Source: Lepidurus packardi
Lineage: Eukaryota > Arthropoda > Branchiopoda > Notostraca > Triopsidae
DNA: 64,000 bases
Assembly (NCBI GenBank): GCA_023053545.1
Contig: JAKZAN010000002.1
Coordinates: 8,428,790 to 8,492,789 of the forward strand
Reading direction: 5' to 3'
Part shown: piece by piece, positions 1,089 to 50,003 of the stretch
Layout of the letters: the number at the start of each line of letters is the position of its first letter
How positions within the stretch are numbered: the first letter of the stretch is position 1
The notes under the pieces: model-generated
Database searches by the model: none
Seen by the model: the letters and a program-made list of their open reading frames with translations, nothing else
What the model was told of the DNA's origin: nothing
Position numbers and translations under genes: made by a program

Positions 1089-1399
1089 TGTTGTTTATTC
1101 CTATTAATTGTGTTTTAAAGCCAAGGTCAATGAAGTTAACACGATTTCCGCAGCAAATTATAAAAGAATGGAGCAAAAGCGCCTGAAAAGTGAAAACGAA
1201 AACTTATAAATATATGCTTTTAAATAGGTACTATACCGTATGCTTCTTTTCTTTACTCACTGGTGTCCTTAGTGTTTATCAAAGTCGATAGGAACTGGTT
1301 ACATGGATTTTATGGCCTTGACATTGCTCTTTTCTAGAATCGAGAAGGATGAAAGTCGCAGACTCAGGGTGCCGAGGGTGGGCGGATCTGGAAGGAGGA
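1089..1399. other. Left half of a split divergent promoter region
   Basis: This is non-coding DNA between the reductase start and the left end of the mobile element. Its other half is 14481-14637, directly before the acetyltransferase start. Joined, the two halves make a spacer of about 470 bp between divergent genes, so the element landed inside a shared promoter/5' leader region. I recognise no specific promoter motif. Confidence 0.6.
1396..1399. repeat. Target-site duplication, left copy (AGGA)
   Basis: AGGA directly precedes the TGTTGCG end. The matching copy is at 14481-14484. Four bases can agree by chance, but both copies sit exactly at the ends of the inverted repeats. Confidence 0.75.
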
Positions 1400-1466
1400 T
1401 GTTGCGACCCAAGTAGAGCCTCTACCCGAGTTCGAACTCGGGTAACCCAAGTTCGAACTCGGGTAG
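1400..1466 (+). repeat. Terminal inverted repeat, left (67 bp)
   Basis: The first 15 bp match the right end perfectly and the remainder matches with scattered changes. It contains the perfect 18-bp palindrome CCCGAGTTCGAACTCGGG followed by a second near copy. The same motif is the core of the tandem arrays inside the element, so it is probably a protein-binding site, possibly for the transposase (inference). Confidence 0.85.
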
Positions 1467-1947
1467 CAATATTTGACACTAAAGTTCTCCACACCTACAC
1501 AGTTTTTGCAAGTGAAATTAACAATACCGTTTATTGCTTTAGTTATCTTTAATTTGGCATTATTACCTTGGCAGTAATTTCACAACTTATTTAAATATGT
1601 ATCTTCGAAGTTTACATGACAAGTTTTGTTTACAGTGGAGTGTAGACTACTTTACTTGGAGGCGTTGCATGTAGGAGGGGCTACTTAGAACTGCAGTTTA
1701 CGCCACTTGTGTCGACTTTCATCACTAAAGAGTAGAGTTGTGCTTGTCACTCCTCAATTTATATGTATCATTATTTTTATTATTGTTTTTGGGGTACAGT
1801 ACTTGAAAAGTTTGTTGGTAACTAATGTTCACTCATATAATAACAGTAGCTCAAACGTATAGCATGCAGAAGTTGGATATCCAGGTATGGTTATTATAAT
1901 AATAATATTGAATTACAAGTTGGAATTTATGATTCACTATACCCTAC
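1467..1947. other. Non-coding stretch inside the mobile element
   Basis: This is AT-rich DNA between the left terminal repeat and the 3' end of the envelope-like pseudogene. I see no coding exon, no second element and no repeat. A long terminal repeat might be expected here if the envelope-like gene came from a separate retroelement insertion; I do not recognise one. Confidence 0.5.
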
Positions 1948-3839
1948 TTATTTATCATCAACATCAAGTAAGGTTTGCCAGAGACGAAGACTTCGTCTCT
2001 GGCAAACCTTACTTGATGTTCGAAGTAGTTCAATTTGTTTTCTTGTCAGCCATCTAAGCCTCAAAAACATATAGATGATGGCAGGGAGGGCAAATACTGT
2101 GGCGGCAGTAATCACAACAGCCCAACAGTATAGTAAAAATTGGGTCAAGAAGCTTTGGGTCAGACAGACATACGAAATTTCGTCACTCAGATTATTAAAA
2201 ATAGGTTTTGAATCTTGAACTGCTTTTTCGAACAACTTGTATCTGATTTCCCAATTTGGGTCTAATGTACTTTTTTTCTGTAGGTCTTCCATAATGTCTT
2301 TGGTAATTTGCGTTAATCCTTGATGATTTGGTTTTGGGAGTTGCACAACAGGATATGGTAAGTTAAAATCTAAATCGGAAAAGATATTTTTTACGTCTAT
2401 AGTGCTGGTGTGGATTGTATAATTATTAAGTTTTTCCAAGTTTGCCGGAAAGGTCCATCACCCGGAGTGAGCTGAGCAGCCATCCGGTAGTTCTAAGATG
2501 CCCACATCATTTAGCTGGACACTGGAACTCTTGCTGTAGGCTTCTGGACGTCGTCTTCTGGGCAAGATATTGTAAGTTGCATTGGTTGAGGTATTGAATA
2601 GATCCATTTTTTTTTCCCAAGGTAATGACGCCATGGCCTGCCGTCTATTCGGACTGTCTTTTTGCACAATTCCGCAATCAAGACAGTATCATTAAAGAAC
2701 GCAGCATACAAGCAAGAGCGCCCATGGATGCCACGCGTGAGGGCTTTACTGGTGGAGCAAATCTTCGCTGATCCTGTTGTACAAGTTTCTGCCAATTCTG
2801 AGGAAGTATAATTCAACATACTACTGTCTGTCGCTTGTTAAGCCGAGATAATCGTATTGTGTCTCATAGACAACTGAGAAATTCCCTCCAGGTAAAAAAG
2901 TCGGTAGAGTTATTAGTTGATAAAGATCAAGTGTAGTACTTAAATCTTGTAGTGGTATGTCCACGAAGATTTTCAGTGTGCCTTGGAGTGTTGCTGCTGA
3001 ACGCACCCGGAATTCCTGATAATGGGTCCACATGTTCCCTGGTTCTGCCGCCTTTGTTACGACCCAGTTGCGGGATAGGTAGCGGCTTACTTCTTGAAGA
3101 ATTTGCCATAGCTCTGTTGGAGGAATTATGTTTGGTGAAAGTCGTCCTGACGCTATTGTTGACAAGCCCGTGTTCATGTTATTAACGTTTTGGTGTAACC
3201 AAAGTATAATGGTACCAAGGGTATGATAAGCGTTGTCCAATTTTCGAGCAAAATTCCACGTAAACGCATAAAAATCTCCAAATTCTGCAATCACAGCTTC
3301 GAGGTCTTCAACACTACTGGCAAGGCTACTCACTGCTTTCGTAATTTTTGAAATAGCGTCCACATTTTTCCGGACCTGCAGGTACGTGCCGTTTAGTAAT
3401 GTAGCCTGTTGTTCTTCTAAATGATACAGCATTCTATTGTCCTTTGTTATCCTGCTGAATTTTCGGTTAATGTCTTCTAGATCTTTGCTGCTAAGGGTGC
3501 CAAAAAGCCAGCGCAAGACTTCACCTCCACCGTTAAGGATTCCCCGTTTTTGCCTCGGAATTAAGTTGGGGGTTGAATCTTCGTATGAAATGGCCTTCAT
3601 TAGTGTCTCTTAGGTATCTCAATGTTAGGTGTCTCAAGGTACTGTTAATGGCGTCCAGTTCAATTTTGATTTGTCTATTTTCGTCGTTTCGTTTTGTTTG
3701 CATTTCTTTGATGAATTTTAGCATTGCGGTGTCGAGTTTCTCTATGCTACGTTGGCGACTGTCTGTGAAGGTCAGATGTTTGATTTGCGTTCTGTTGTTT
3801 TGCGCAGAGAAAGGGCTTTTTCTACACAATACCGAACTT
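1948..3839 (-). pseudogene. Baculovirus-F / errantivirus-type envelope glycoprotein remnant, frame-disrupted
   Basis: Class I fusion glycoprotein remnant, read on the minus strand. Recognisable parts in order: a charged helical stretch (about 3830-3560); a dibasic furin-type site R-Q-K-R (about 3544-3555) directly before a glycine-rich fusion-peptide-like start; a long heptad-rich helix; a Cys-containing segment with a G-K-x-x-W pattern (about 2810-2540); the family-like 'GILELPDGC' (near 2480); and a C-terminal hydrophobic membrane segment with a basic tail, ending at the stop at 1948. At least four breaks interrupt it: a frame change near 3560, an in-frame stop plus frame change at 2821, a frame change near 2540 and a stop at 2458. 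The N-terminal subunit expected upstream of the cleavage site is mostly missing, because the reading runs straight into the tandem array at 3840. It is therefore an inactive fossil. Its presence inside a DNA transposon is the unusual point. Confidence 0.75.
1960..2020. repeat. Perfect 61-bp hairpin palindrome (30-bp arms, 1-bp centre)
   Basis: Bases 1960-1989 are the exact reverse complement of 1991-2020, with a single A at 1990 between them. It lies at the C-terminal end of the envelope-like remnant, so the last codons before the stop come from the second arm. It looks like a fold-back copying event, and the DNA or RNA could form a very stable stem. Confidence 0.9.
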
Positions 3840-3840
3840 A

Positions 3841-4905
3841 GGCTCCCCAAGTTCGAACTCGGGTAACCCGAGTTCGAACTCGGGGAGCCCAAGTTCAAGA
3901 AATCCCCATAAGCGTCCTATTTTGAGAGAGTTTTTATAAGATTTAATAGCATACTTAACCTGTTGATGTAATAAATTAAGTGGTTTATCTTTGTGCTGTG
4001 AACGTGCTATGAGAAGGGGCTTTTTCTACACAATACCGAACTCGGGTTCCCAAAAGTTAGAACTCTATCGGTAATAGCCCTATATTGTTCAAGAATTGAG
4101 ACAATATTGTAAAATTTGATTGAATAAAAATCTTGCTTATGATTTTAAAAAGTTTGAGAGACCTTTCGTAAAATTGTATAAAATAATAAGCTTGTTGATG
4201 TAATAAATTAAGTGGTTTCTCTTTTTGTCGTGAACTAGCTGTGAATAGTCCTTTCTCTACGCAATACTGAACTTGGGCTCCCCAAGTTCGAACTCGGGTA
4301 ACCCGAGTTCGAACTCGGGGAGCCCAAGTTCAAGAAATCCCCATAAGCGTCCTATTTTGGGAGAGTTTTTATAAGATTTAATAGCACACTAAACCAGTTG
4401 ATGTAATAAATTAAGTGGTTTCTCTTTTTGTCGTGAACTAGCTGTGAATAGTCCTTTCTCTACGCAATACTGAACTTGGGTTCCCCAAGTTCGAACTCGG
4501 GTAACCCGAGTTCGAACTCGGGGAGCCCAAGTTCAAGAAATCCCCATAAGCGTCCTATTTTGAGAGAGTTTTTATAAGATTTAATAGCACACTTAACCTG
4601 TTGATGTAATAAATTAAGTGGTTTCTCTTTTTGTCGTGAACTAGCTGTGAATAGTCCTTTCTCTACGCAATACTGAACTTGGGCTTCCCAAGTTCGAACT
4701 CGGGTAACCCGAGTTCGAACTCGGGGAGCCCAAGTTCAAGAAATCCCCATAAGCGTCCTATTTTGAGAGAGTTTTTATAAGATTTAATAGCACACTTAAC
4801 CTGTTGATGTAATAAATTAAGTGGTTTATCTTTGTGCTGTGAACATGCTATGAGAAAGGGCTTTTTCTACACAATACCGAACTCAGGTTCCCAACTTTGA
4901 ACTCT
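3841..4905 (+). repeat. Tandem array of about 203-bp units with double palindrome core (left array)
   Basis: Clean units have their core at 4284, 4487 and 4690 (exact 203-bp spacing), with further cores at 3849 and degenerate ones near 4040 and 4885. Each core is two head-to-tail copies of the palindrome CCCGAGTTCGAACTCGGG or its CCCAAGTTCG variant, joined by TAA or GAG. After the core comes a conserved spacer containing 'AAATCCCCATAAGCGTCC' and 'TTGATGTAATAAATTAAG'. The core motif is the same as in the terminal repeats. The array forms the outer part of the left inverted-repeat arm. Confidence 0.9.
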
Positions 4906-6274
4906 ATCGGTTGCCCTATGTTCAAGAATTGCCTGCAAATGTCTTTTTTTAATATAATGGTGCAATATACACCAAATGTGTGTATATTTTCAAAAGTTTG
5001 GTTCACTCGGGTATGTTCACTAAATGGAATGCCTATATTTATTAAAATTTCAATTGAACTTATGTAGCAGACAAAGCAAATAAATGCTTAGCATCGAAAT
5101 TGAAAATATAATATTCGTATATGTGATGTAAAGGGAAGGGAAGTTAAGGGGATTCGTAAATGTGAAGAGTGCGCAGTGCATTTAAGGACAAGGATTTCCC
5201 CTATTGGTCGGAATATAACAATATAAGTACAGTCTATATATTCAATATAAGTACTTGGGATGACCGTATTCCACTTCTCATTTTACTGTGGTCTTACTAA
5301 GAGCGCGAAGCTTGTTTACCATGGAAGGTATATCCTCCCATCTCCTGTGAAGGCGTTTGCTACCAATTTCGTTTTTTCTTTTCTTACAGGAAAATGCAAT
5401 TTAATTGATAATTGTGAAGAGTGTCTTGGTGATGGCGACTGTGCCTTCATGGTTGGACCCAACGACGGGGACATCGTCTGTTTCAACGAAGATACGGGGC
5501 ACCCGCTGGCACCCTACTATGCTCGTATTGAGCATTGCGGTATAGTAATACATTTTCTTTTAATAGAATATGCTAAATTCGATTCTTTAGATGAAAGTAC
5601 CTACATTCGAGTGGCTACAAGCCTCGTCGTTCTTGCAGTTTGTGTAATTTGCGTACTTGGAGTTATGGTTTACTGGTACGCTCTGAAATGCTTTAATTAC
5701 AAAACTTTATCCTAATGATTTGTCGTTATAGTAAACGACGGCGTAATCGACGGAATGAAATAGTATAGGAAAATTACTCATGCTTTTGATCCTCTTCATG
5801 CTTTTGTGTTTCCGGTTTTTGTAATCCAGTTTACGATTTGTAGTTTAATCGGACATTGTATGCTTTTGATTTTTTCAATGGTTTTTATTGTGCTTTTATC
5901 ATATTTTGTGATTTTTTTCAATTTGTATGTCTAAAAACTTTGAATACATAAGTTAACCTTGTTTTTATCTATCTTGTCTGTTTGGTGAAATGTTTTAACA
6001 ATTTACGCAGCTCCTTTTCCGAAATAAATTTTCCGTTTATTTACTCTTTTCGTTACCTCCTGCCAACACAAATTTTACACGTTTTCCGAAGGTTTTGTCT
6101 TCGAAAGGCTTGGAAAGATACGGTCCGAAAGGGTTGGAAAGCTATGCTATATCGGTTCTTCCGTCCCCCAGCAACCATCGTCGCATCCCAGCACTCAACC
6201 ATCGTCGTTCTGATTTGAGGTCACACAGTGCAAACATTGTCGGCTTTTCAAAATTTAGTTTTAGTCGCTGTTTC
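3897..6274 (+). repeat. Internal 2.37-kb inverted repeat, left arm
   Basis: Every base x here pairs with base 17562-x in 11288-13665. No insertion or deletion was found across the arm, and I saw a difference only at the outer edge (3902/13660). The outer end lies in the middle of a tandem unit; the inner end is in the last codons of the transposase. The arm holds the tandem array, the PSI/TM gene and about 560 bp of unassigned DNA. Such identity means recent duplication or ongoing gene conversion, unless it is an assembly artefact. Confidence 0.92.
5260..5715 (+). CDS. Small PSI-like Cys-rich, single-pass membrane protein (left-arm copy)
   Basis: The open frame carries a short cysteine module, 'GKCNLIDNCEECLGDGDC' followed by another Cys about 14 residues on, resembling a plexin/semaphorin/integrin (PSI) knot. 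Then comes one strong membrane helix ('VATSLVVLAVCVICVLGVMV') and a short tail. Splicing is likely. A GTATAT donor at 5328 and a TTCTTACAG acceptor ending at 5389 would join ATG-GAA-G (ATG at 5321, in an ACCATGG context) to the Cys module in frame. A 36-nt intron is also possible between GAGCATTGCG and AATATGC (about 5539-5574). No signal peptide is visible, so an upstream exon may be missing. It looks like a fragment of a host surface gene captured by the element. The function is unknown. An identical mirror copy lies at 11847-12302. Confidence 0.55.
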   Translation: MTVFHFSFYCGLTKSAKLVYHGRYILPSPVKAFATNFVFSFLTGKCNLIDNCEECLGDGDCAFMVGPNDGDIVCFNEDTGHPLAPYYARIEHCGIVIHFLLIEYAKFDSLDESTYIRVATSLVVLAVCVICVLGVMVYWYALKCFNYKTLS

Positions 6275-6529
6275 CAGAAGTTCTTTTAAAATTGCAAGCG
6301 AAGAGCGATTTCGCTCGCCAATTTTGAAGACCGATTTTTAGCTCTGGGCGCAAGTACAGCTCGTCTGACCTGCTGCGTGTGTGCTTCGGTTGTGTTGTGT
6401 TGAGTGTTGCTCTTGCCTCTATATTAATGTGATAGTGAGATTAAATTTGTATTTAAGTTGTTGTCCTTTCTTTGTTAGTTATCATGTTGCTTGCAGTTTG
6501 CTAATTCTGCTCCTTACATTAAGTTTAAA
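5716..6529. promoter_or_regulatory. 5' flank of the transposase gene
   Basis: No coding exon is recognisable here. 5716-6274 is the inner part of the left arm and is repeated upside down after the transposase gene. 6275-6529 is unique and must hold the promoter and leader of the transposase. It includes an imperfect hairpin around 6287-6327 (AAAATTG.. / ..CCAATTTT). A pyrimidine-poor TTGCAG just before 6497 could be an acceptor for an untranslated first exon. Confidence 0.35.
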
Positions 6530-9500
6530 ATGCAGGGTCTTGGTCCTGTGGATCGCGAGAAATTTGATTTAGTGGTACGACAAAAAGCCAGAGTTCGCAA
6601 CTCGGTGATTATCACCAATGAGAAATATCAGAAGATTCTTGCCGAATTGCACAAACAAAAAGAAGGGGCGACGTTAAGTAATGAAATAAGTAGAAAATTT
6701 ATTTTGCAAACTGACGAAAGCGGTGAGGAATACGTTGCGTGCTTTACTGAGCCGTCCCAAAGTATGGCAAAAGGGTACGCGCGTCAACCTTTCAAGCGCG
6801 TCGTCCGGGCTGAAGAAATGTACGATTACATCAAGAAGGTGCACGAAAATGACACGAATCATACGTCACCTAGGGCGGCGTTTCATTATGTAAGTTAATT
6901 AAGCAATATATCAAGCTTACCATACTATAACATTGTTTTAGGTGCAAGCGTATTACTATGGAGTAACCCGTTTTTTAGTTGAAGAATATACCCAAATGTG
7001 CCCGTACTGTGCAACCAAAAAAGTCCAAACAAATGCAACTCCCATGAGGCACGTGGTTGCCAGTGATGTCATGTCACAAGGACAGGTAAGTGGTCCTGAG
7101 AAGATACGGGGAAAAGCTTACAGATTTTACTTTTCTTTGGTAGCTCGATCTGGTCCTTCTGCCGAAGAAGTCGGTTGTCGACGGGTATCGCTACATAGCC
7201 CAGTATGTAGACTTGGCGTCCCGTTTCCATATTCTATGGCCAATGCGCAAAAAAAATGGGACGGAAATCTATGAAGGCTTACTGAGATACGTGTTCAGCG
7301 TGTTTGGACCCCCAAAAAGGCTCCAGACAGATAATGGAACTGAATTTCGGGATCAAGTAATACTGTTAACATGAACATGAACGGATACCAAAGGAAGATT
7401 AATATTATTTCACAGGCGTTGGCAGCGGGCTTAAGTAATTGGCCAATACAACATATCTTTGGAAGGGTACGACATCCCCAAAGCCAAGGAGTAGTTGAGC
7501 GGGCCAACGCTGAGCTGAAGAAATTGCTTCGTAACCGCACGCTGACCGACAAGCAACAAAGAACCTGGCTCTACTGGCTGCCAGTAGTTCAGTGTAATAT
7601 TCTTTTGATTAAACAATGAGGGATTTGGGTTTGTAATGGAATAATGTTGTATTTTATTTTCAGATCAAATGAATACGAGAAGATCACAACCCATTGGCCA
7701 ACTATCTTCATTCGCGGTCATGTTTGGGAAAGCTCCGGTACCTTATGGAAGACCGGAACTAAACCCAACACCAGCTGCTGATTATACCACTACGGAACTG
7801 CCATTGGGTCCTGATTCAGAAGATAGCGAGGAAGACGGATCAGAACCTCTTCCTACTCTGTCAGCGGACTTCATTTTTCTAGATACCCTTGATGCTGTAA
7901 GTTTCTTCCAATGATGATGTTGTTCCTTCCAATGTTCCTGAGCTATCCCTTGAAAAATTATCTGTTTCGACTCAGGAATTGGAACCTGAAGAGGACCCTT
8001 TTGCGCTAGCTTCCACGTCAACTGCCAATCCGGTCATCGAAGCCTACTGCGGTGGAGATGTGGTATGCCTGAAATCGCCGACTCAGGAGTTAATGGAACC
8101 TGAAGAGGACCCTTTTGCGCTAGCTTCCACGTCAACTGCCAATCCGGTCATCGAAGCCTACTGCGGTAGAAGTGGTGTGATCTGCACGGATGTTGAAGTC
8201 GCTGAAACGGACTCAGAGGTACTACCTGCGTGCACTTTTCCACCAAGAAAAAAAAAATTACTGCCATGGTTCATCATATTTAATTTTTTTATGTATTTTT
8301 ATTTTAGCTTGACGGTGTTGCACCACTAAACGAGGATCGTCTGGCCATCTTCCGCTTTGTCCGCAGCCAAGCGGCAGCAGCATTATCCCATAGCCATGAA
8401 ACTATGAATCAAAAGGCTGGGTTAAATCCGTGCAAACGCACAACCAAGCTAGAAGTAGGGAACCACGTTACCGTGTTAATTCCCACCAAAGACCGGACAA
8501 GCTTGGAGAGCAGCCGCCTTCCAGGTATAGTCATCAGAGTGAGCGGTGATACATACCGAACCTACACCGTCCAGTCGTTCCACGGGGTACTTCGGGAGTC
8601 ATATACGGAAAATCACTTAGAGCTTTATGAACAGAAATTTAAGCAACTCTACCATTGTAAAAGTTACGAAGTTATACCGCTAAGGACGGCGGTTCGACTT
8701 TTTTACGGCGGTAAAAGCAAAGTAGACATTTGCGAGTGTAAAAGTGATTGTGAAACTAAGCGGTGCAGGTGTAACCGAACGTTAAAAAATTGCACATCGG
8801 CTTGTCATGGTGGAAGGTACTGCCAAAACCAGGCGCTTTCTGAAACAAGTATGGCAGTTACACAATTATACTTTCAAGCTCTGAGGTTTAAAGTAAACGA
8901 AGTGATCGGCTCCGCATATAACCTTGCTGGTAATTTCTTCACTTTGTTTTGGGGCGAAGAGGGTAAGGTTTTGTTTTTCTTTTAGGAGATGTGAACTCTG
9001 ACGATTCGAACGACTATTGCAAACCTGAATATCACGAACCGTACAGATCCATTCCGGTAGATGAAATGCAGGTGTTGTCGGAGCAAGGACTACAATATCG
9101 TTTGAAAGTCTCTGAAGACCATTTTTGGGATCAAGCTGGTAAGCACATAAATTATTTAAGAGAGATACAAGGCTTAAAGTCCCGACTTATTTATTTATGA
9201 TCCAGATGCGACTTCTTGTAGCTGCCGTAAGATGTGTTTGAAAAAATTTTGCAAGTGCATGCAGGCCTCACGGAGATGTACCGAACTTTGCCATGGCGAA
9301 CAAGCTTGCAACAATGCCGAAGCACGAGAATTAAGTGAGTTGCAAATGAATATAACAATGTCAAACTTATTCTGCGGTACAGAACATCAAGCAAAAAAAT
9401 CTTCGAATGGGTGTGACTGCATTGAAGACTGCGATGTGGCAGAAGATTGTTCCTGTCGAGCATTCTGTGATATGGAATGCACTTGCAGCAAGAACTGTTC

Positions 9501-11301
9501 AAAAAGTAAATCAATTTTGTGAATATATAATTTAATCCCGTTCCATACAACAATATATAATTACATGTAGGGAAAGGCCTCCCAACCCAGAATAACCGAA
9601 TCATGTGTGACTGCACGGAGTCATGTATAAACAGTAAGGAATGTGAATGCAAGAAGGCTGACATTCCGTGTTGGTCGGCTTTGTGCCATAACGGAAGGAC
9701 TTGCGATCTTATCGATGAGAACATGGGTAAGCTTATTACCATACTGCTGCAAAGAAAAACGCGAAGATGACTACTCTAATTATTCAAAACAGAAACACAA
9801 GCGGGACCACGCGATGACCAGTCAGCGATTCAGTCCGCTGAACCACAATTCACTGATGCAGACATGGGTACGCATTTTGATTCTTCCTCCTAAATTGCTG
9901 ATTGATTTTTACTTTTCAATCATTTAAGCAGTCAACGAGGAGGCTATCCCTATGGAAGACGAACCACAGCCCTTAACTGAGGATGATTTATTTAAAAAAT
10001 TCAACTGCCAATGCAAAGATAATTATTGCGCACCAAAATTCTGTCCTTGTCGAACGACCGTTAATTTGCTGGATCCAACTGACCTCTCCCGTACAATAAA
10101 ATCTCTTCGATGCAGCACGACATGTCATAGAGGACGATTATGTTCAAACCAAGTTGAACGAAAAGGTAATTTTATTGAAGAATTCAAACTTACCCGATTA
10201 AGATTTAATTACTTTTTGCTCGACAGTTACTAATAAGTTGGAGACGCTTTTTCATTCCACGAAACTCAAGCATTTACGCACGGTGCTACCGTCGTTATAT
10301 GCTGCATATGCATGGATTCAGGCAAACATGCATCACTTTGAGGAGCATGTTACCATCCCCTACGTAAGGTATTCAATGGCACAAATTCCTCACCCTAAAA
10401 TTCCTTTTATAGTTGGAACAAAAATGGAAATTAAACAACAAAATGGAAAAGCGTATTAAGGAAACGGGGGCCTTGGATTACCCCACTGTAATCCTGGATC
10501 GTGATTTGGATGATTACTGGTACCGCTATAGAATTATTGCTCACACCCCGGATGATTTAGAAATTCTGCGCGATGCAAAGATCTGTCTTCTTTGGGCTTC
10601 CAATGCTGTGACAATTGAAGCTTCGACTAACCGAAGTCCATACAAATTGCTCGAGTATCAGGTAGAAAACAAGACATCTCTGCTATAACCTAACCTAAAC
10701 CATTACTTTTCGGCAGCTAGCGATGGATTCCAAATCTAAGGCTGGGAAGCAGCAGTCGTCTCATGCTACAACTGTCCTAAATTGGGCCGTAACACAAAAG
10801 GAACAAGGCAATCGCACAACGGTACGTGCGACCAGTTTTAAACATCCTTCGGTTCCGGCGTCGAGAAAATTGCGAGCCGGACCACTAAAGTTTGAAAACA
10901 TGCTGCCTACAGAAAAGACGCACTTAGTGTTATCGTGGCTTCTGAAGGAATCGAGTCTGGACAAAGGAATTAAAAAACTAGAAAAGGCCGACAATAGCGA
11001 TCTAAAATTAGATTCCCGGGCTATCTCGGATGGAGTTCTTGACCAGCGGGTTAACAAAGAATTTAACCGAGTATATACGTACCTCACACCGCAAGCCAAG
11101 ATTACCGTAAAAAAGCTCATCGCAGAAAAGCGCGGGAAAAAGCTATTTTGCTGTCCTGCATGCAGTCTACCGGCGAAAAACAAAACTGTACAGTGTGACC
11201 GATGCTTGTCATGGTTTCATTACCTTTGTGCAACGAATTTTCACATGGCGGAGCACAAGGATAAAGACTGGTTTTGTGGAACTTGTAGAAACAGCGACTA
11301 A
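6530..11301 (+). CDS. Integrase-type (DD35E) transposase with Cys-rich CXC-like modules and PHD finger, 16 exons
   Basis: Catalyses cutting and joining of the element ends (family knowledge). Exons: 6530-6889, 6942-7085, 7144-7356, 7416-7593, 7664-7896, 7976-8218, 8308-8929, 8986-9138, 9206-9334, 9383-9505, 9571-9726, 9793-9867, 9932-10165, 10227-10363, 10413-10661, 10717-11301; together 1277 codons plus stop, with no break. Domains: H2C2-type finger ending C-P-Y-C (about residues 95-155); integrase core with D170, D231 (TDNGTEF) and E267 (QGVVERAN), exactly D-35-E; an acidic linker with a duplicated segment; a GPY/F-like module (about 480-550); five Cys-rich clusters of the 'CKSDCETKRCRC' style (about 590-945); and a C-terminal PHD finger (C-x2-C, C-x2-C, H-x2-C, C-x2-C; about 1222-1274). 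The Cys clusters recall KRBA2/Ginger integrases. The final four codons lie inside the right inverted-repeat arm. It appears intact and possibly active. Confidence 0.9.
7981..8167 (+). repeat. Tandem duplication of a 73-bp identical stretch (114-bp period) inside transposase exon 6
   Basis: 7981-8053 is repeated base for base at 8095-8167. It encodes an acidic linker repeat ('EPEEDPFALASTSTANPVIE') twice. The acceptor-like CGACTCAG before exon 6 (ending 7975) is duplicated too, as ACTCAG ending at 8086. Both acceptors keep the same reading frame, so a form lacking 37 residues could be made by alternative splicing. Confidence 0.85.
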
Positions 11302-13665
11302 AACTAAATTTTGAAAAGCCGACAATGTTTGCACTGTGTGACCTCAAATCAGAACGACGATGGTTGAGTGCTGGGATGCGACGATGGTTGCTGGGGGACG
11401 GAAGAACCGATATAGCATAGCTTTCCAACCCTTTCGGACCGTATCTTTCCAAGCCTTTCGAAGACAAAACCTTCGGAAAACGTGTAAAATTTGTGTTGGC
11501 AGGAGGTAACGAAAAGAGTAAATAAACGGAAAATTTATTTCGGAAAAGGAGCTGCGTAAATTGTTAAAACATTTCACCAAACAGACAAGATAGATAAAAA
11601 CAAGGTTAACTTATGTATTCAAAGTTTTTAGACATACAAATTGAAAAAAATCACAAAATATGATAAAAGCACAATAAAAACCATTGAAAAAATCAAAAGC
11701 ATACAATGTCCGATTAAACTACAAATCGTAAACTGGATTACAAAAACCGGAAACACAAAAGCATGAAGAGGATCAAAAGCATGAGTAATTTTCCTATACT
11801 ATTTCATTCCGTCGATTACGCCGTCGTTTACTATAACGACAAATCATTAGGATAAAGTTTTGTAATTAAAGCATTTCAGAGCGTACCAGTAAACCATAAC
11901 TCCAAGTACGCAAATTACACAAACTGCAAGAACGACGAGGCTTGTAGCCACTCGAATGTAGGTACTTTCATCTAAAGAATCGAATTTAGCATATTCTATT
12001 AAAAGAAAATGTATTACTATACCGCAATGCTCAATACGAGCATAGTAGGGTGCCAGCGGGTGCCCCGTATCTTCGTTGAAACAGACGATGTCCCCGTCGT
12101 TGGGTCCAACCATGAAGGCACAGTCGCCATCACCAAGACACTCTTCACAATTATCAATTAAATTGCATTTTCCTGTAAGAAAAGAAAAAACGAAATTGGT
12201 AGCAAACGCCTTCACAGGAGATGGGAGGATATACCTTCCATGGTAAACAAGCTTCGCGCTCTTAGTAAGACCACAGTAAAATGAGAAGTGGAATACGGTC
12301 ATCCCAAGTACTTATATTGAATATATAGACTGTACTTATATTGTTATATTCCGACCAATAGGGGAAATCCTTGTCCTTAAATGCACTGCGCACTCTTCAC
12401 ATTTACGAATCCCCTTAACTTCCCTTCCCTTTACATCACATATACGAATATTATATTTTCAATTTCGATGCTAAGCATTTATTTGCTTTGTCTGCTACAT
12501 AAGTTCAATTGAAATTTTAATAAATATAGGCATTCCATTTAGTGAACATACCCGAGTGAACCAAACTTTTGAAAATATACACACATTTGGTGTATATTGC
12601 ACCATTATATTAAAAAAAGACATTTGCAGGCAATTCTTGAACATAGGGCAACCGATAGAGTTCAAAGTTGGGAACCTGAGTTCGGTATTGTGTAGAAAAA
12701 GCCCTTTCTCATAGCATGTTCACAGCACAAAGATAAACCACTTAATTTATTACATCAACAGGTTAAGTGTGCTATTAAATCTTATAAAAACTCTCTCAAA
12801 ATAGGACGCTTATGGGGATTTCTTGAACTTGGGCTCCCCGAGTTCGAACTCGGGTTACCCGAGTTCGAACTTGGGAAGCCCAAGTTCAGTATTGCGTAGA
12901 GAAAGGACTATTCACAGCTAGTTCACGACAAAAAGAGAAACCACTTAATTTATTACATCAACAGGTTAAGTGTGCTATTAAATCTTATAAAAACTCTCTC
13001 AAAATAGGACGCTTATGGGGATTTCTTGAACTTGGGCTCCCCGAGTTCGAACTCGGGTTACCCGAGTTCGAACTTGGGGAACCCAAGTTCAGTATTGCGT
13101 AGAGAAAGGACTATTCACAGCTAGTTCACGACAAAAAGAGAAACCACTTAATTTATTACATCAACTGGTTTAGTGTGCTATTAAATCTTATAAAAACTCT
13201 CCCAAAATAGGACGCTTATGGGGATTTCTTGAACTTGGGCTCCCCGAGTTCGAACTCGGGTTACCCGAGTTCGAACTTGGGGAGCCCAAGTTCAGTATTG
13301 CGTAGAGAAAGGACTATTCACAGCTAGTTCACGACAAAAAGAGAAACCACTTAATTTATTACATCAACAAGCTTATTATTTTATACAATTTTACGAAAGG
13401 TCTCTCAAACTTTTTAAAATCATAAGCAAGATTTTTATTCAATCAAATTTTACAATATTGTCTCAATTCTTGAACAATATAGGGCTATTACCGATAGAGT
13501 TCTAACTTTTGGGAACCCGAGTTCGGTATTGTGTAGAAAAAGCCCCTTCTCATAGCACGTTCACAGCACAAAGATAAACCACTTAATTTATTACATCAAC
13601 AGGTTAAGTATGCTATTAAATCTTATAAAAACTCTCTCAAAATAGGACGCTTATGGGGAATTCTT
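11288..13665 (-). repeat. Internal 2.37-kb inverted repeat, right arm
   Basis: Reverse-complement partner of 3897-6274 (coordinate sum 17562), without insertions or deletions. It begins inside the transposase stop region and ends inside a tandem unit. The next outward unit (13667-13740) is related to, but clearly diverged from, the matching left unit (3841-3896), so the identical zone stops within the array. Confidence 0.92.
11847..12302 (-). CDS. Small PSI-like Cys-rich, single-pass membrane protein (right-arm copy)
   Basis: Mirror copy of the gene at 5260-5715, with the same predicted residues, cysteine pattern, membrane helix and candidate small introns. The two copies point toward the transposase gene from both sides. 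Because it lies in the inverted repeat, the element carries two doses of this gene and conversion between arms can keep them identical. See the left copy for the structure and doubts about the start. Confidence 0.55.
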   Translation of the reverse strand: MTVFHFSFYCGLTKSAKLVYHGRYILPSPVKAFATNFVFSFLTGKCNLIDNCEECLGDGDCAFMVGPNDGDIVCFNEDTGHPLAPYYARIEHCGIVIHFLLIEYAKFDSLDESTYIRVATSLVVLAVCVICVLGVMVYWYALKCFNYKTLS

Positions 13666-13740
13666 GAGCTATATGTTTACCCAATAGTTCGAACTTATGC
13701 TGGGTAGCTCAAGTTCAGTATTATGTAGAGAGAGCACTTT
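12640..13740 (-). repeat. Tandem array of about 203-bp units (right array)
   Basis: Reverse complement of the left array, with clean cores near 12872, 13075 and 13278. The outermost unit (about 13661-13740) lies beyond the identical zone. It keeps 'AGTTCGAAC' but has lost most of the palindrome, showing what an unconverted unit looks like. Confidence 0.88.
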
Positions 13741-14413
13741 TTCCATCGCATTTTCAGAACAAAAAGAAACCAGTTAATTAATTTAATCAAGTTTACTACT
13801 CTATCATATGTATCGATTTTATTTAATACGCGAATACAAAGAGACCGAGCAACGCGGTCTCCTTTTCTTAACAACAACAAAAAAGTTTATTAACACTTTA
13901 TTCACTATTTTAACTGCATGAACAATACATGAAACGCAACGGTGTAATCACTAAGAAAGGGTTACATTCACAAGTACAAACTTGAATAGAAAGTAGGAGA
14001 TTTGACACAACGAAGGTCTATGTTTGGATGTCGAATGAGAAGTTTTAAGCATCCTTCGATTTCTATGAAATATATAAATACAAAATAGATTTAAAATGAA
14101 TCTGTGTCTAAGTTAAGTAACTTCACATAAGTTCACTAAATCTTTTCCGTTAAAAGAGATACCATTTGTTTATATTTTTGTTCACGGCTTGAATAAAGAA
14201 AGAATAACAATTTTCATAAGCTTTATACTGGAGAGAAAATACAATTAACAGCGACTCCAACGGATCATGTTTGCAAGTAGATAAAGTCACACCCAAAGCT
14301 ACACCCTTCTTTTGGAAAATGCCACGCCTCTGCAAAATGTGTCACGTCAAATATAAAGTTCATACTTTTAAGCATCGAACTTGGGCAGATGCCTCGCGTC
14401 CCAAGTTCAGTGT
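13741..14413. other. Unassigned DNA between right array and right terminal repeat
   Basis: This is AT-rich DNA with no exon or repeat I can support. Near 14370-14413, just inside the terminal repeat, there are extra fragments of the CCCAAGTTCG motif. There is no counterpart of the left-side envelope-like gene here, so that cargo is on one side only. Confidence 0.5.
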
Positions 14414-14480
14414 CTACCCAAGTACGAACTTGGGCTGCCCGAGCTCGAACTCGGGCAGATATCGAACTTGGGTCGCAACA
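14414..14480 (-). repeat. Terminal inverted repeat, right (67 bp)
   Basis: Reverse complement of the left end. The outer 15 bp are identical and the rest is similar, with the palindrome changed to CCCGAGTTCGAGCTCGGG on the complementary strand. It ends CGCAACA, followed directly by the AGGA duplication. Confidence 0.85.
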
Positions 14481-14484
14481 AGGA
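14481..14484. repeat. Target-site duplication, right copy (AGGA)
   Basis: AGGA follows the CGCAACA end directly and matches 1396-1399. Confidence 0.75.
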
Positions 14485-36406: not shown

Positions 36407-39400
36407 TTAATTTTCTTCATCTAGTATAGGATCGTCGTATTCACCATTGTCACTGGAATTCTCGCGATAATAGCTATCCTCATTGTTTCCAAGAGTTTGA
36501 CTGAATACGTAGGTTGACGTAGTGATTTCTTCATCTAAGGGCGAAGTCGACGAAGAAGTAGCTATTTTAGTAGGGAAAGGTTCTAAGGACGAGGTGGTAT
36601 TCAGGATTGCTTCAGTAGGAGAAGAAAAGGTGGTATTATCTTGGGAATCATGGCTTTTGGCTTTAGGCAAGGTTGTTTTCAGGGGATAAGAATGTTCAAA
36701 GGGCGACGTAGAATCCACAAGTGTATCTGTAGGCGTAGGCATAGATCTAGTGAGGTTTCCGTTGGGATTGGTAGTATCACTTTCAGCGGAGGTTAGTGTT
36801 GATATAATAGTTAGTTGCGATACAAAAGTTTCAAAGGTAGGGCTTGAATCCAAGAGGCCATCACGAACAGATTCCGTGAGAATTTTGTCAAAACTAGCAT
36901 TTTCATAATTATTGAAATTGAATGTTGACCGTGTAGTACCCAAAGAAATTAAGGAAGTTTCAGAGCTAGAACTATGGTTTTTTTCCGGAAATATTGGCTG
37001 ATCTGAATCCCCACTAGCTTCCCAGTCGAACTCGTTAATAGATTCATGAACAGCAGTTAAGGGAAACCCGAAGTTCGTCGCCGCTGTGGATTCCGTAGTA
37101 CTGTCGTCGTAGAAATCTTGCTGCGTAGCGACTGTTGGCGGAAGGAAGGACGCCGCTGACTTCGATGCCGTTGGTCTGGCTGTTTCTTCCATTGATGGCG
37201 CTGCTCTCGGATGTTCGTCGAGTACTGCAGTTTGTATTCGGAACGTTGCTGGTGTGTTTTCGTGATCGGAGGCTGACAAGTTTATAAAATCTGTGTAAGT
37301 TACTATTTCAGTGTATGGCAAAGAATGTAGCGTGGTTATGGCAGTGGTCTCCGTCAAGCTAGGAGGTGTAGTCGCGGAAGTAGTATGAGGCATGCTTCGT
37401 GCGATGGGAATAGGTGGCGTATCGGTTAGTTTAGTAGTGGAAGTACTTGTTGGAGTTACCTGGGTATTTGCAAGTAAAGCGGCTTCTGTAACCGTTGTAG
37501 ACTCTTGCCATCTTTGGAAGTGTTCGCTATTTTCGTCGGAGTTCAGTGTTGAGAAAAGGTCCAATTCAGAGAGAGAGGTGTCAATAGAAGAAGTTGAATC
37601 CACTGGCGAATCCAATGACGAGCTATTAGTAAGCGATCCAGGATGGGTTTCATCCGAGTCGACGTCATTATCAAAGTAATTTAGTTTGGATTGTGTACTG
37701 TCCAATGGGACTGAGGAACTTCCAAAAATAGAACTGTAGCTTACTAATTTTTCAAAGATTGGCTCCTCTCTATCTCCACTGGCAGCGAATTCGATCTCTT
37801 CAGTATCCTGAGGCGTGGTTAAGGGAAAGTCATAAAATTTTTTCTCTGTTAGGGACTCCGTAATGTCGTCGTAGTCATCTTCACCCGGTTCAGCTGCTCT
37901 CGTATTTCCCTCGGTACTAGTAGCTTCTTCCGTGATAGTCCCCTGTGTTGTTTCATGACTGGGCGCTCGTATCGGTGATGGTGTTGCTCTCGTACTTTCT
38001 TCTGCACTAATAGCTTCTTTTGTGACAATCCTTGGTGTCGTTTCATGACTGGAAGCTCTTAAGGTTGATAAATCCATGTATATTTTTTGATCAGTAGACA
38101 ATGGAATTGGCTTCTTGAACACACTGGTTTCCGTGAAGGTAGAAGGTTCATTCGTTGAATTAGTGTGTGGGATGCTTCCAGCACTCGGAAAGGGCGAGGT
38201 CGAATCGAGTTGTTTAATGTTGATAGTCTTCGCTGGAGTTATTCGGGTAGTTGCAGGTAATGTAGCTTCCCTAGTCGTTGTCGATTCAGGTAAACTTGCT
38301 GTCTGCTTTGCATGATCAGGCAAACGGGGAGGTTTGCGGACAGATGCAAATAGAGAGTCTTCTCGGTGCAGAAGGGTGACATTAATTGACACTTCACTCG
38401 CGGAAAGTTGGATTGAATTGTAGGACCAAATACGGCAAGTTACAGTGATCTGCGCGTGAGGGTAACGGAGAACGAACGGATCGTCGACTTTAATTGTCAC
38501 GGCTGGGTAACAGTTTCGAGTAAGTTTATCCAACGGAAAGAGTTGCCTACGTTGCAGTACAGGTTCTGTCTTATATAACTTATAACTTTTAAAATTGTAC
38601 GTTACTTTGGAAAGCCGCTGGCTGGCCATATGTTGTTCAGTTCTTTCTCGTATCTGAAATCGATGGGTTTGCCATTGCGATACGTTGACGCGTTCGTGGC
38701 TCTGACATTGCAAGAAATTGGTAAAAAGTCTTTTTTGTAACTGGGAAGCATGTCAGTATGTAAGAAGTCATCAGGAACCCAAATTCCTGTCTGCAAATCA
38801 AGTTTGTTTTTAGTTTGAGGTGGAAACTTCTATATGATGTCCTTTGTATTACATGTTCCAAGCGAGCTACTAAGTAAAAGATGCCTTGCTTCATTCCATA
38901 ACTCTCGTCGGAATCTCCCAGTTGTAATGAGGCAGCCTTTGGACAATGTCCCGTTTTACTCTTAGCATATTCTGTAATACAGAAATACGGGAAGACAATA
39001 TCTATAGTTAGATATATACAGTACATGTAGCTAGGTACCCGCGTACGAGACTAAAGGATTTTCCGCTGTTTGGGAGAAAATCCATTTGGTCCCTACTGAG
39101 TCCTATAATAAAGCGTTTTGCTTGTACTTACCATCCAAAATTATTTTCATGTTTCGCGTGTATTCACCATTATGGTTGGTGAAATCCACAGTGATATTAC
39201 TTCTTTGCGAGGGAAGGAAAGTCAAATAACCCTTAACAGACTTAACGGCTTCGGTGCCGGCATTTGAGGCTTCCCATTCCGCAGTAGTTCCGAATTTCTC
39301 AGCGGTAAAGATTAAAAGCAGGATGAAGAAAACACATGTTTCAATTATGATGACACCAGCAGCCGTCCCTAGAAAGAAGATTAAATCCTTATATACTTTA

Positions 39401-47814: not shown

Positions 47815-50003
47815 TTAAACCCTTCCTATATAATCGTCGTCACTGTAATGAGAGTTTTCACCACCATCTGGGGGATGGTCAAAACTTGGAACGGTGGAAG
47901 GGATTTCTATGCTGGATGTAGTTTCTAACTTACTGAATGTAGTTTCCAACATACTGGATGTAGTTTCCAACGTATTGGATGTAGCTTCCAAAGTACTGGA
48001 TGTACTTTCCAACATACCGGATGTATTTTCCAACGTATTGGACGTAGTTCCCAACGTACTGGGCGTAGTTTTCAAGGTACTAGAAGTACTTTCCAACGTT
48101 CTGGATGTAGTTTTGAACGTACTGGACGTAGTTTTCAAGGTACTGGAAGTGCTTTCCAGCGTATGGTAAGTATTTCCCGAAAGAACCGAAGAAGCTTCAA
48201 AAGCCAAAGTAGTTTCCAACGAATCGGAAGAAGTTCCAAGCGTTGGAGTAAAATTCAATGCTTTAATATGCGAGGAAGAAGAATTTCTTTCATTATTATT
48301 ATTGACTGAAGATGCCGCGGGAATCGAAACTGATGAAGTTTCCACAATCGAAGAATGATTTCGGAATTCGACGAAAAAAGGTGGCTGATATTTGTCCCCT
48401 AAGTTAGACTTTTCCAGTATATTTTCGGTCGTGGTTAACACGACGTTATAGTTACCATTCTTTGTTGATCTATTATTAGTTTGTTCGTGGTACTCTCCTT
48501 CCTTTGTTGTTGCTAGCGAAGGGAGGGTTAGATTTAAGTCCTTTGGTTTACTTGTTATTTCCGTCAATAATGATGTTCTTGTAGCCGGTTTGACACTATT
48601 AATTTCCGCTGCGCCAGTCACTGGTAACCTTTTGTGACTAGTGGCTGATGGCTTGGTAAAATCCATATAAGTTGTTGTGTCAGTAGATGACAAAGGAAGT
48701 GCAGTAGTCGAGACACTGGATTTTGTAAAGGTGGAGGTGGAACGTGCATTGGTGGAAGTGGAAGTGGTATGAGGCATACTTTTAGTGAAGCGAACAGACA
48801 GCAATTCGATTGGCTTTATGTTAGTTGTATCTTTTGGAGTACCCTGTGTACTACGTAGTGTGACTTTGGCGGTCGATGTTGACTCGAGCAACGTGGGAGA
48901 ATGTTTAGGTTTACGAGCCTCTTTTAGTGCCTCTCCTCGATGCAGGAGAGTAACGTTAATTGATACCGAATCAGCGGCAAGAATTCTCGAGTTATACGAC
49001 CAAATTTCGCAAACGACGCTTATTTGCTCATGCTGGTAATTGAGAACAAAAGGATCGTCCACTTTAATTGTCACAGGTGGATAGCAGTTTCCAGGAACTT
49101 TGCCAAGCGGAAATAATTTTCTTAGGAACAATAAAAATGCGGCTGTTAATATTTTGAATACTTGGAAACTGAGCGCTTACTTAGGAAAGCCGCTGGCTGG
49201 CCAGATACTCGTAAGTTGTTTCCTGTAGTAGAAATCATGGAGTTTTCCATGGCGAATATACGACTTATTCTGGGCAATGATGTCGCAAGACACTGGTAAA
49301 AAATCATTTTTGTAATGTGGAAGCCAGTTAGTCTGCAAAAAGTCGCCAGGAATCCAGTTTTGCGTCTTAAAGAATAGTGTATTTAGTATTGGATATTATT
49401 TACTATTTTGTATTCTTATATTACTTCTTCCAATCGAGCTACTAAGCAAAAGAAGCCGTCGTCGAGTCCATAATACTTCGTCCAATCGCAATCCCCCAAG
49501 CTTAATTCGGGAGCCTTTATACAAGCTTTTCTTTTGTATTCAGCGTATTCTACACTTCAACGAAAAAACAGGGTGGAGTATTCATACTCAATATGTTCCA
49601 AGAAAGAATGTTTGTAATAGTTGCAGTCTGTTCTGTACTTACCGTCTAAAACCAGGTTCATATAATTTTGGGAGTACTCAGCAGGCTTCTTAAAATCTAC
49701 AGTAATACTTGCTCGGTTTGCAGGAAGAAACGTCAAGTGACCCATCTTAGTAGTTTTGAGTGAAGGTATCGGATTTGCATCCTCTCCATTAAGGCTATCG
49801 TGCGAGGTTGCCGAATGCGCTTGCGGTCGTTCATCATATGCAGCATTTTCAGAGTTAAAATACAGAAGCATGAAAAAAAATATACACGCTTCTATTGTGA
49901 TGATGCCAGCCACAGTCCCTACAAGAAACGCTGATAATTGTGCTTTGAAAGAGCAAAACTTACAGTAGAAGCAAATCTTGCATTTTCGGTTGCACCACAC
50001 CAT
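47815..50003 (-). CDS. Type II mucin-like membrane protein, paralogue 2 (643 residues)
   Basis: Paralogue of the gene at 36407-39459. Exons in gene order: 50003-49964, 49918-49643, 49549-49425, 49365-49181, 49120-47815. Intron phases are identical, and exons 1 and 4 have the same lengths (40 and 185 nt). The N-terminus is M-V-W-C-N-R-K-C-K-I-C-F, then the membrane helix. The conserved ectodomain start has 'GHLTFLPANRASITVDF', 'WIPGDFLQT', 'IWPASGFP', 'CYPPVTIKVDDPFVL' and 'INVTLLHRGE'. The Ser/Thr-rich part is shorter, has one block instead of two, and contains a run of eight-residue repeats near the C-terminus. The tail is acidic ('HYSDDDYIG'). Function unknown. Confidence 0.82.
47915..48170 (-). 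repeat. Coding minisatellite, about 24-bp units
   Basis: About ten near copies of a 24-bp unit encode T-L-E-T-T-S-S-T and variants (TLKTTSST, TLESTSST, MLETTFSK) in the mucin-like gene. On the plus strand it reads as repeats of 'GTACTGGATGTAGTTTCCAA'. Units differ slightly, so it is not brand new, but copy number is likely to vary between individuals. Confidence 0.9.

What the first reader, a model, noticed from the sequence alone, without database searches (positions are those of the whole stretch)
1400..14480. A 13-kb integrase-type DNA transposon with envelope-like and membrane-protein cargo
Clean ends (67-bp TIR, TG..CA, AGGA duplication), an apparently intact 1277-residue DD35E transposase, a fossil fusion glycoprotein and two copies of a PSI/TM gene lie in one unit. 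I know of no described Ginger-type element with this layout. It resembles how Maverick elements in some animals carry fusion proteins, which would hint at a past virus-like phase or sequence capture between element classes.
Basis: partly seen in the sequence, partly recalled or inferred. Interest (0 to 1): 0.92.

Follow-up and report, generated by a model that had tools for sequence, protein, structure and literature searches.

The report
Jumping gene carrying a broken envelope
A recently active cut-and-paste transposon in an arthropod-like genome carries the remains of a retrovirus-like envelope gene to new sites and has a central block that can lie in either direction, but the envelope gene looks broken in the copies examined and is probably a passenger.

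Summary
1400-14480 is one mobile element: at least 20 places in the genome have the same left end, 17 of 18 testable end pairs have identical 4-bp duplications, and the flanks are unrelated. Envelope-like sequence follows 20 of 20 left ends; transposase is in 10 copies (11 units, 99.2-100% identical, 4 of them visibly damaged). The window's spliced transposase is one 1294-aa frame: DD35E integrase core, CXC-like repeats, PHD finger.

The virus-like reading is not supported. The envelope fragment is closest, in this genome, to an envelope gene behind gypsy pol, seems to lack its N-terminus, and is split over frames in 19 of 19 copies where this could be read. Related elements share the end modules but carry other cargo, so a captured passenger is most likely.

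Two further features: (1) 2.39-kb inverted arms stay nearly identical within a copy but differ between subfamilies, and the transposase core is reversed in 2 of 11 units, incl. one of two equal-length copies that are 99.9% identical where compared. (2) Paired palindromes 21 bp apart, mostly centred on TTCGAA, lie at both ends (variant centres on the right) and in the arrays, probably transposase sites. It is Ginger-like but fails Ginger1 tests.

The parts
1396..1399 (.). target-site duplication AGGA, left copy
1400..1466 (+). left terminal inverted repeat (67 bp, 82% to the right end) with two palindromes 21 bp apart
1400..1930 (+). left end module, shared with sister elements L095 and L096 (85-89% identity), which diverge from the window at about 1927-1937
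1948..3800 (-). captured envelope-like fragment in several frames (ORF pieces 1948-2457, 2511-2837, 2821-3609, 3533-3916, the last running on into the repeats); membrane-spanning stretch near its C-terminal end, RQKR cleavage-like site and glycine-rich stretch in the core piece (motifs by eye)
   Evidence: (Baculo_F 8.5e-10 for the core piece)
3892..6283 (+). left arm of the 2392-bp internal inverted repeat, with an array of 203-bp units (4193-4904) holding paired palindromes
6530..11301 (+). transposase gene, 15 exons, 1294 aa: H2C2-like zinc motif (by eye), DD35E integrase core, five CXC-like cysteine repeats (one weak Pfam match, the others by eye), C-terminal PHD finger
11279..13670 (-). 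right arm of the internal inverted repeat (4 mismatches of 2392 to the left arm)
11847..12311 (-). small membrane-protein ORF, copy 2
13880..14480 (+). right end module, shared with sisters L095 and L097, whose similarity on this side stops at 13879-13882; L096 also has a block ending at 13882 but shows weaker array-type similarity further in
14414..14480 (-). right terminal inverted repeat, with a palindrome pair 21 bp apart whose centres are variants of TTCGAA
14481..14484 (.). target-site duplication AGGA, right copy

Best explanation
It is a recently active, integrase-type (Ginger-like) cut-and-paste DNA transposon whose interior is modular cargo. The transposase binds paired palindromes around TTCGAA in the ends (probably with its CXC-like repeats; inferred), joins the TG..CA ends to a new site with 4-bp stagger (shown by the duplications), and carries everything between. 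An ancestor captured an envelope fragment lacking its 5' part, most likely from a Ty3/gypsy envelope-bearing retroelement (inferred), antisense to the transposase and next to the left end module. That fragment is now a broken passenger. A block with terminal-type palindrome arrays and a small membrane-protein ORF became duplicated in inverted orientation on both sides of the transposase; recombination and gene conversion between the arms (inferred) keep them alike and flip the core. Shorter copies arose by internal deletion through the same repeats and keep the envelope fragment because it lies outside the deleted part.
For: 20 of 20 listed left ends have envelope-like sequence downstream on the antisense strand; 10 copies have transposase, 9 show none, 1 (C39) is cut by the contig end. 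17 of 18 duplications match. Of 10 other transposase units 4 are 100% and 6 are 99.2-99.6% identical to the window over 3.7 kb. The best ten of 44 diverged envelope rows are 32-34% identical; the one followed, L052, lies about 1 kb behind a gypsy pol with protease, RT, RNase H and integrase. Arms: 0-2 differences within a copy, 14-15 between subfamilies in 1379 bp, three copies compared. C3:6607576-6620406 and C3:8525756-8538586: both 12,831 bp, 2 mismatches in 3668 bp on the envelope side and 1 in 3675 bp of transposase, different duplications, opposite core. AGTTCGAACT 17 times vs at most 1 in 200 shuffles; nine palindrome pairs, all 21 bp apart. L095 has the same end modules with its own duplication AGCA and PAN-domain ORFs inside.
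Against: DNA binding by the CXC-like repeats is unproven: the right end has no exact TTCGAA, and LIN54 needs two tyrosines that fail when changed to phenylalanine (PMC4974476, passages), while the best-matching repeat here (CLKKFCKC) seems to have phenylalanine there (by eye, LIN54 letters recalled). The palindrome pairs sit in repeat arrays, so they are not independent. The envelope donor itself was not found (the ten best diverged matches are 32-34% identical). Core inversion could be an assembly error if reads did not span about 10 kb. Sisters L097 and L074 also hold an envelope piece, so capture is not very recent. Four of 11 transposase units are damaged.
Confidence: 0.8

Rival explanations
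1. Virus-like phase: the envelope-like protein once worked for the element (fusion, spread between animals), as proposed for Maverick elements of nematodes.
For: Envelope piece after 20 of 20 left ends incl. copies without transposase; also a 112-bp piece at 91% in two sister loci whose transposase is about 25% diverged; a second membrane-protein ORF is kept in two copies per element.
Against: N-terminal and core parts in different frames in 19 of 19 readable copies; much shorter N-terminal part than the relative L052 (by eye); no capsid or polymerase domain in the ORFs scanned; codon changes 10 replacement vs 3 silent.
Confidence: 0.07
2. Chance nesting: an envelope fragment or retroelement happened to insert in this one copy.
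For: Other sequence does nest in other copies: a 630-bp LTR-like repeat in the envelope part of L038 and L039, larger inserts in the C3:2910473, C3:2963373 and C1:7275376 copies.
Against: The envelope part lies antisense after all 20 left ends and next to the same element sequence in the copies aligned.
Confidence: 0.05
3. The inverted arms and core flips are assembly artefacts of a simpler element.
For: Near-identical 2.4-kb arms are hard to assemble; read type unknown; one copy borders Ns (L075).
Against: 11 of 11 transposase units have the small ORF in both arms in the same state; three copies from two subfamilies show arms alike within and different between; the one flipped copy read at its junctions is clean.
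Confidence: 0.12

Closest known systems
Ginger2/Tdd DNA transposons (Bao et al. 2010, PMC2836005; parts 1-2 of 5 read)
   Same: Gypsy-integrase-like DDE transposase with H2C2 zinc motif, TGTNR ends, 4-bp duplication, no YPYY or GPY/F motif seen (by eye)
   Different: target not RTATAY (1 of 17 is TATA); 13 kb instead of about 2.8-6.7 kb for the full elements in its table; CXC-like repeats and PHD; 14 introns; cargo and inverted arms
Ginger1 DNA transposons (same paper)
   Same: 4-bp duplications, TGTNR ends, extra C-terminal domains, PHD in one family
   Different: no CCGG/CCGT target, no OTU or Ulp1 match, no YPYY or GPY/F by eye
Maverick/Polinton elements with a fusogen in nematodes (meeting report PMC10680173, one passage; original work not seen)
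   Same: integrase-bearing element with a membrane-fusion-type gene
   Different: no polymerase or capsid domain found; 4-bp instead of 6-bp duplication (6 bp: PMC10045372, passages); envelope part broken
Ty3/gypsy element with envelope gene in the same genome (L052/L098)
   Same: envelope core 33% identical
   Different: here without gag, pol or LTRs; truncated and antisense inside a DNA transposon
Pack-TYPE gene-capturing transposons (PMC8903248, start of abstract in a listing)
   Same: conserved ends around captured coding fragments
   Different: described there as plant, non-autonomous elements; here an animal family with an open transposase frame in some copies

Membership tests
Ginger1 | target CCGG (or CCGT/ACGG) | tested here: not met
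   0 of 17 duplications
Ginger1 | OTU or Ulp1 domain at the C-terminus | tested here: not met
   Pfam on the 1294-aa protein gives rve and CXC only at E<=0.01; PHD when the last exon is scanned alone
Ginger1 | YPYY and GPY/F motifs | tested here: inconclusive
   not seen by eye in the translation; no model at hand
Ginger2/Tdd | DDE integrase core with H2C2 zinc motif, TGTNR ends, 4-5-bp duplication | tested here: met
   (zinc motif by eye)
Ginger2/Tdd | preference for RTATAY | tested here: not met
   1 of 17 duplications is TATA
Ginger2/Tdd | position in an integrase tree | not tested
   no Ginger reference sequences at hand; shared protein database off
Maverick/Polinton | 6-bp target duplication | tested here: not met
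   4-bp duplications, 17 of 18; 6 bp from PMC10045372
Maverick/Polinton | DNA polymerase and capsid genes | tested here: not met
   no such Pfam match in the element's ORFs of 100 aa or more; shorter ORFs not scanned
Ty3/gypsy retroelement | LTRs and reverse transcriptase inside the unit | tested here: not met
   terminal repeats are inverted; no RT match in the ORFs scanned
baculovirus F / gypsy Env protein family | Pfam Baculo_F above gathering score | tested here: met
   38.3 bits vs cut-off 24.1

The most novel reading that the evidence does not exclude
A DNA transposon took an envelope gene from a gypsy-type retroelement, used it for cell-to-cell or animal-to-animal spread in an earlier lineage, and in this genome only the broken form is left, while arm recombination makes the element an isomerising transposon with a switchable core.
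Probability: 0.07. Interest if true: 0.88.

Novelty: new variant of a known kind. Interest (0 to 1): 0.52.

Why it matters
It shows capture of a retroelement-type envelope fragment by a different element class, caught in a family that has moved recently, with sister elements that place the capture point at the edge of a shared end module. The two orientations of the core give a clear test of whether inverted arms inside a transposon recombine during or between jumps. The paired TTCGAA-type palindromes and the cysteine-rich repeats of the transposase offer a testable recognition system.

Tried and rejected
IMG/VR scans with the transposase N-terminal part and the envelope core confirmed no relative. 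The CXC region has no PDB sequence match up to E=10. A hydrophobic stretch upstream of the envelope part in L038/L039 looked like a signal peptide; it lies in a 630-bp insert that matches many other places, several as pairs about 8.7 kb apart, so I take it for an LTR-like repeat and not envelope. The fold of the small membrane protein was too poor to search. The nematode collagen search was empty and its controls silent, so it says nothing. The cuticle domain Chitin_bind_4 gave 150 matches (150 of 266 candidates scored; 0 of 14 control genomes), which points to an arthropod host (link recalled). Ten paper searches listed no Ginger-type element with an envelope gene and none with flipping inverted arms; I saw titles and abstract starts, plus parts of PMC2836005 and passages of PMC4974476, PMC12863088, PMC10045372, PMC10680173 and PMC3257199. 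An empty-site test was not made: one assembly only. The species was not established.

Full report
Observation. The element runs from 1400 to 14480 (13,081 bp) with AGGA at 1396-1399 and 14481-14484. The terminal repeats are 67 bp at 82% identity. The window belongs to a 108.6-Mb assembly, G000, at C2:8428790-8492789. The host looks like an arthropod: 150 matches to the Chitin_bind_4 cuticle domain. The species was not established.

Family. The left end is listed at 20 places at 100% identity over the stretch matched, the window included (40 of 160 candidates scored, so a lower bound), with right ends at fitting distances. For 18 pairs both flanks could be read; 17 have identical 4-bp duplications and one is offset by a base. 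C39 is cut by its contig and C6:346338 has no right end at the distance of a full copy. Lone right ends were not counted. The target is loosely purine-first and pyrimidine-last (14 of 17 and 13 of 17). The 21 left flanks compared show no mutual similarity. C2:7991759-8015212 is a tandem: two transposase units between one pair of duplications.

Contents across copies. Envelope-like sequence lies antisense, downstream of 20 of 20 left ends. Transposase is in 10 copies (11 units), not found in 9, and unknown in C39. Six short copies of about 3.6 to 5.4 kb have both ends and the envelope part; in those looked at (L034, L037, and the nested copy L036) the envelope part runs straight into the right-hand repeat region. 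Over 3.7 kb the ten other transposase units are 99.2-100% identical to the window, four of them 100%. The family is therefore young. Not all units are sound: five, the window among them, have unchanged exon lengths in all 12 exons tested; two differ in length only within introns; three have a one-base length change in exon 3; one has a stop in exon 7 and an extra repeat unit in exon 6.

Transposase. Fifteen exons with 14 GT-AG introns of 49-89 bp give one frame of 1294 aa in the window. Pfam finds the integrase core (6e-12) and a weak CXC match, and PHD in the last exon (4e-6). The catalytic residues are D170, D231 and E267, with 35 residues between the last two. The closest solved relatives are retroviral integrases, PFV first at 1.3e-10. 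In its own genome, apart from a sister at 75% DNA identity (L097), the next matches are integrases at 22-29% identity, many in long frames as in gypsy pol (109 of 487 candidates scored).

Envelope-like part. The core piece matches Baculo_F (8.5e-10). Of 67 rows, 44 are diverged relatives; the ten best of these are 32-34% identical, shorter ones range up to 44%. The one I followed, L052, is a 716-aa frame about 1 kb downstream of a 1646-aa open pol stretch on the same strand. In the element the N-terminal part is much shorter than in L052 (by eye), and what remains is in another frame than the core in 19 of 19 copies where both were found; L040 and L051 could not be judged. Summed over nine ungapped comparisons of the core (five without change, the window among them; related copies share changes), 3 codon changes are silent and 10 change the residue; eight gapped copies were set aside and four further loci were not compared. 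I read this as a passenger without visible selection, though the numbers are small.

Capture. Two relatives, L095 and L096, share the left module (85-89%) up to about window position 1930, some 20 bp before the envelope stop, and then carry other sequence. On the right, similarity of L095 and L097 stops at 13879-13882; L096 has a block ending at 13882 too, but weaker similarity (71-75%) to the array region follows further in, so the right boundary is less sharp there. L095 is a 6,973-bp element with duplication AGCA and two PAN-domain ORFs (2e-5, above the family's cut-off, and 6e-4, just below) of a family with many members in this genome. L097 and L074 have a 112-bp envelope piece at 91% and transposase parts at 74-76% DNA identity. 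So the end modules are constant, the cargo changes, and the envelope part predates the split from those sisters. That the donor was a gypsy-type element is inference.

Inverted arms. The arms 3892-6283 and 11279-13670 differ at 4 of 2392 positions. In the non-array part (1379 bp) arms of a copy differ at 0 to 2 sites, while the window differs from two copies of the other subfamily at 14-15 sites. The small ORF is whole in both arms of 5 units and split at the same residue in both arms of 6 units; two further partial loci have one copy each. Because both subfamilies have the inverted layout, concerted change is the natural reading. The transposase core is reversed relative to the ends in 2 of 11 units, checked at the junctions for one. 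That copy and C3:8525756-8538586 are both 12,831 bp, with 2 mismatches in 3668 bp and 1 in 3675 bp, but opposite cores and different duplications. Homologous inversion is the simplest reading; assembly error is the main rival.

Palindromes. Nine pairs of the pattern CCCRAG(6)CTYGG, all 21 bp apart, lie in both ends and the arrays. TTCGAA occurs 24 times against a mean of 5.4 and maximum of 12 in 200 dinucleotide shuffles; AGTTCGAACT 17 times against at most 1; without the right arm the counts are 17 and 11. The arrays are repeats, so the pairs are not independent, and the right end has variant centres with no exact TTCGAA. LIN54, a CXC protein, binds TTYRAA through two tyrosines (PMC4974476, passages). 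Whether the CXC-like repeats here do the same is open: a tyrosine-to-phenylalanine change abolished binding there, and here the comparable residue looks like phenylalanine.

Classification. Compared with Bao et al. 2010 (PMC2836005, parts 1 and 2 of 5 read) it fails Ginger1 on target and on OTU/Ulp1, and fails Ginger2 on target while sharing its core features. I file it as a Ginger-like, integrase-type transposon of unassigned group. It is not a Maverick: 4-bp duplications, and no polymerase or capsid domain in the ORFs scanned.

Verdict. The virus-like interpretation is unlikely. The core orientations with homogenised arms and the paired-palindrome system are additional and more testable points.

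Noticed in passing
window 3892-6283 and 11279-13670; C3:6607576-6620406, C3:8525756-8538586: Internal inverted arms homogenised within copies, with the transposase core in opposite orientation in two copies that are 99.9% identical over the 7.3 kb compared.
   Followed up: yes
L095 (C3:2804842-2811814): Sister element of 6,973 bp with the same end modules and duplication AGCA, carrying PAN-domain ORFs related to a host family with many members on C6.
   Followed up: partly
C2:7991759-8015212: Tandem of two transposase units 11,012 bp apart between one pair of 4-bp duplications; Ns follow the inner right end.
   Followed up: partly
L038 and L039 (C2:8387126-8392498, C5:6745926-6750973): A 630-bp LTR-like repeat sits at the same point of the envelope part in two copies, so the interrupted form itself seems to have transposed.
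   Followed up: yes
window 1960-2020: A perfect hairpin with a 30-bp stem near the envelope stop codon.
   Followed up: no
window 36407-38752 and 47815-49176 (minus): Long threonine/serine-rich ORFs of 781 and 453 aa that resemble each other by eye, mucin-like; outside the element.
   Followed up: no
L007 and L008 (C3:2963373 and C3:2910473 copies): In both copies similarity to the element breaks off at about window position 1803-1810, where a large insert follows.
   Followed up: no
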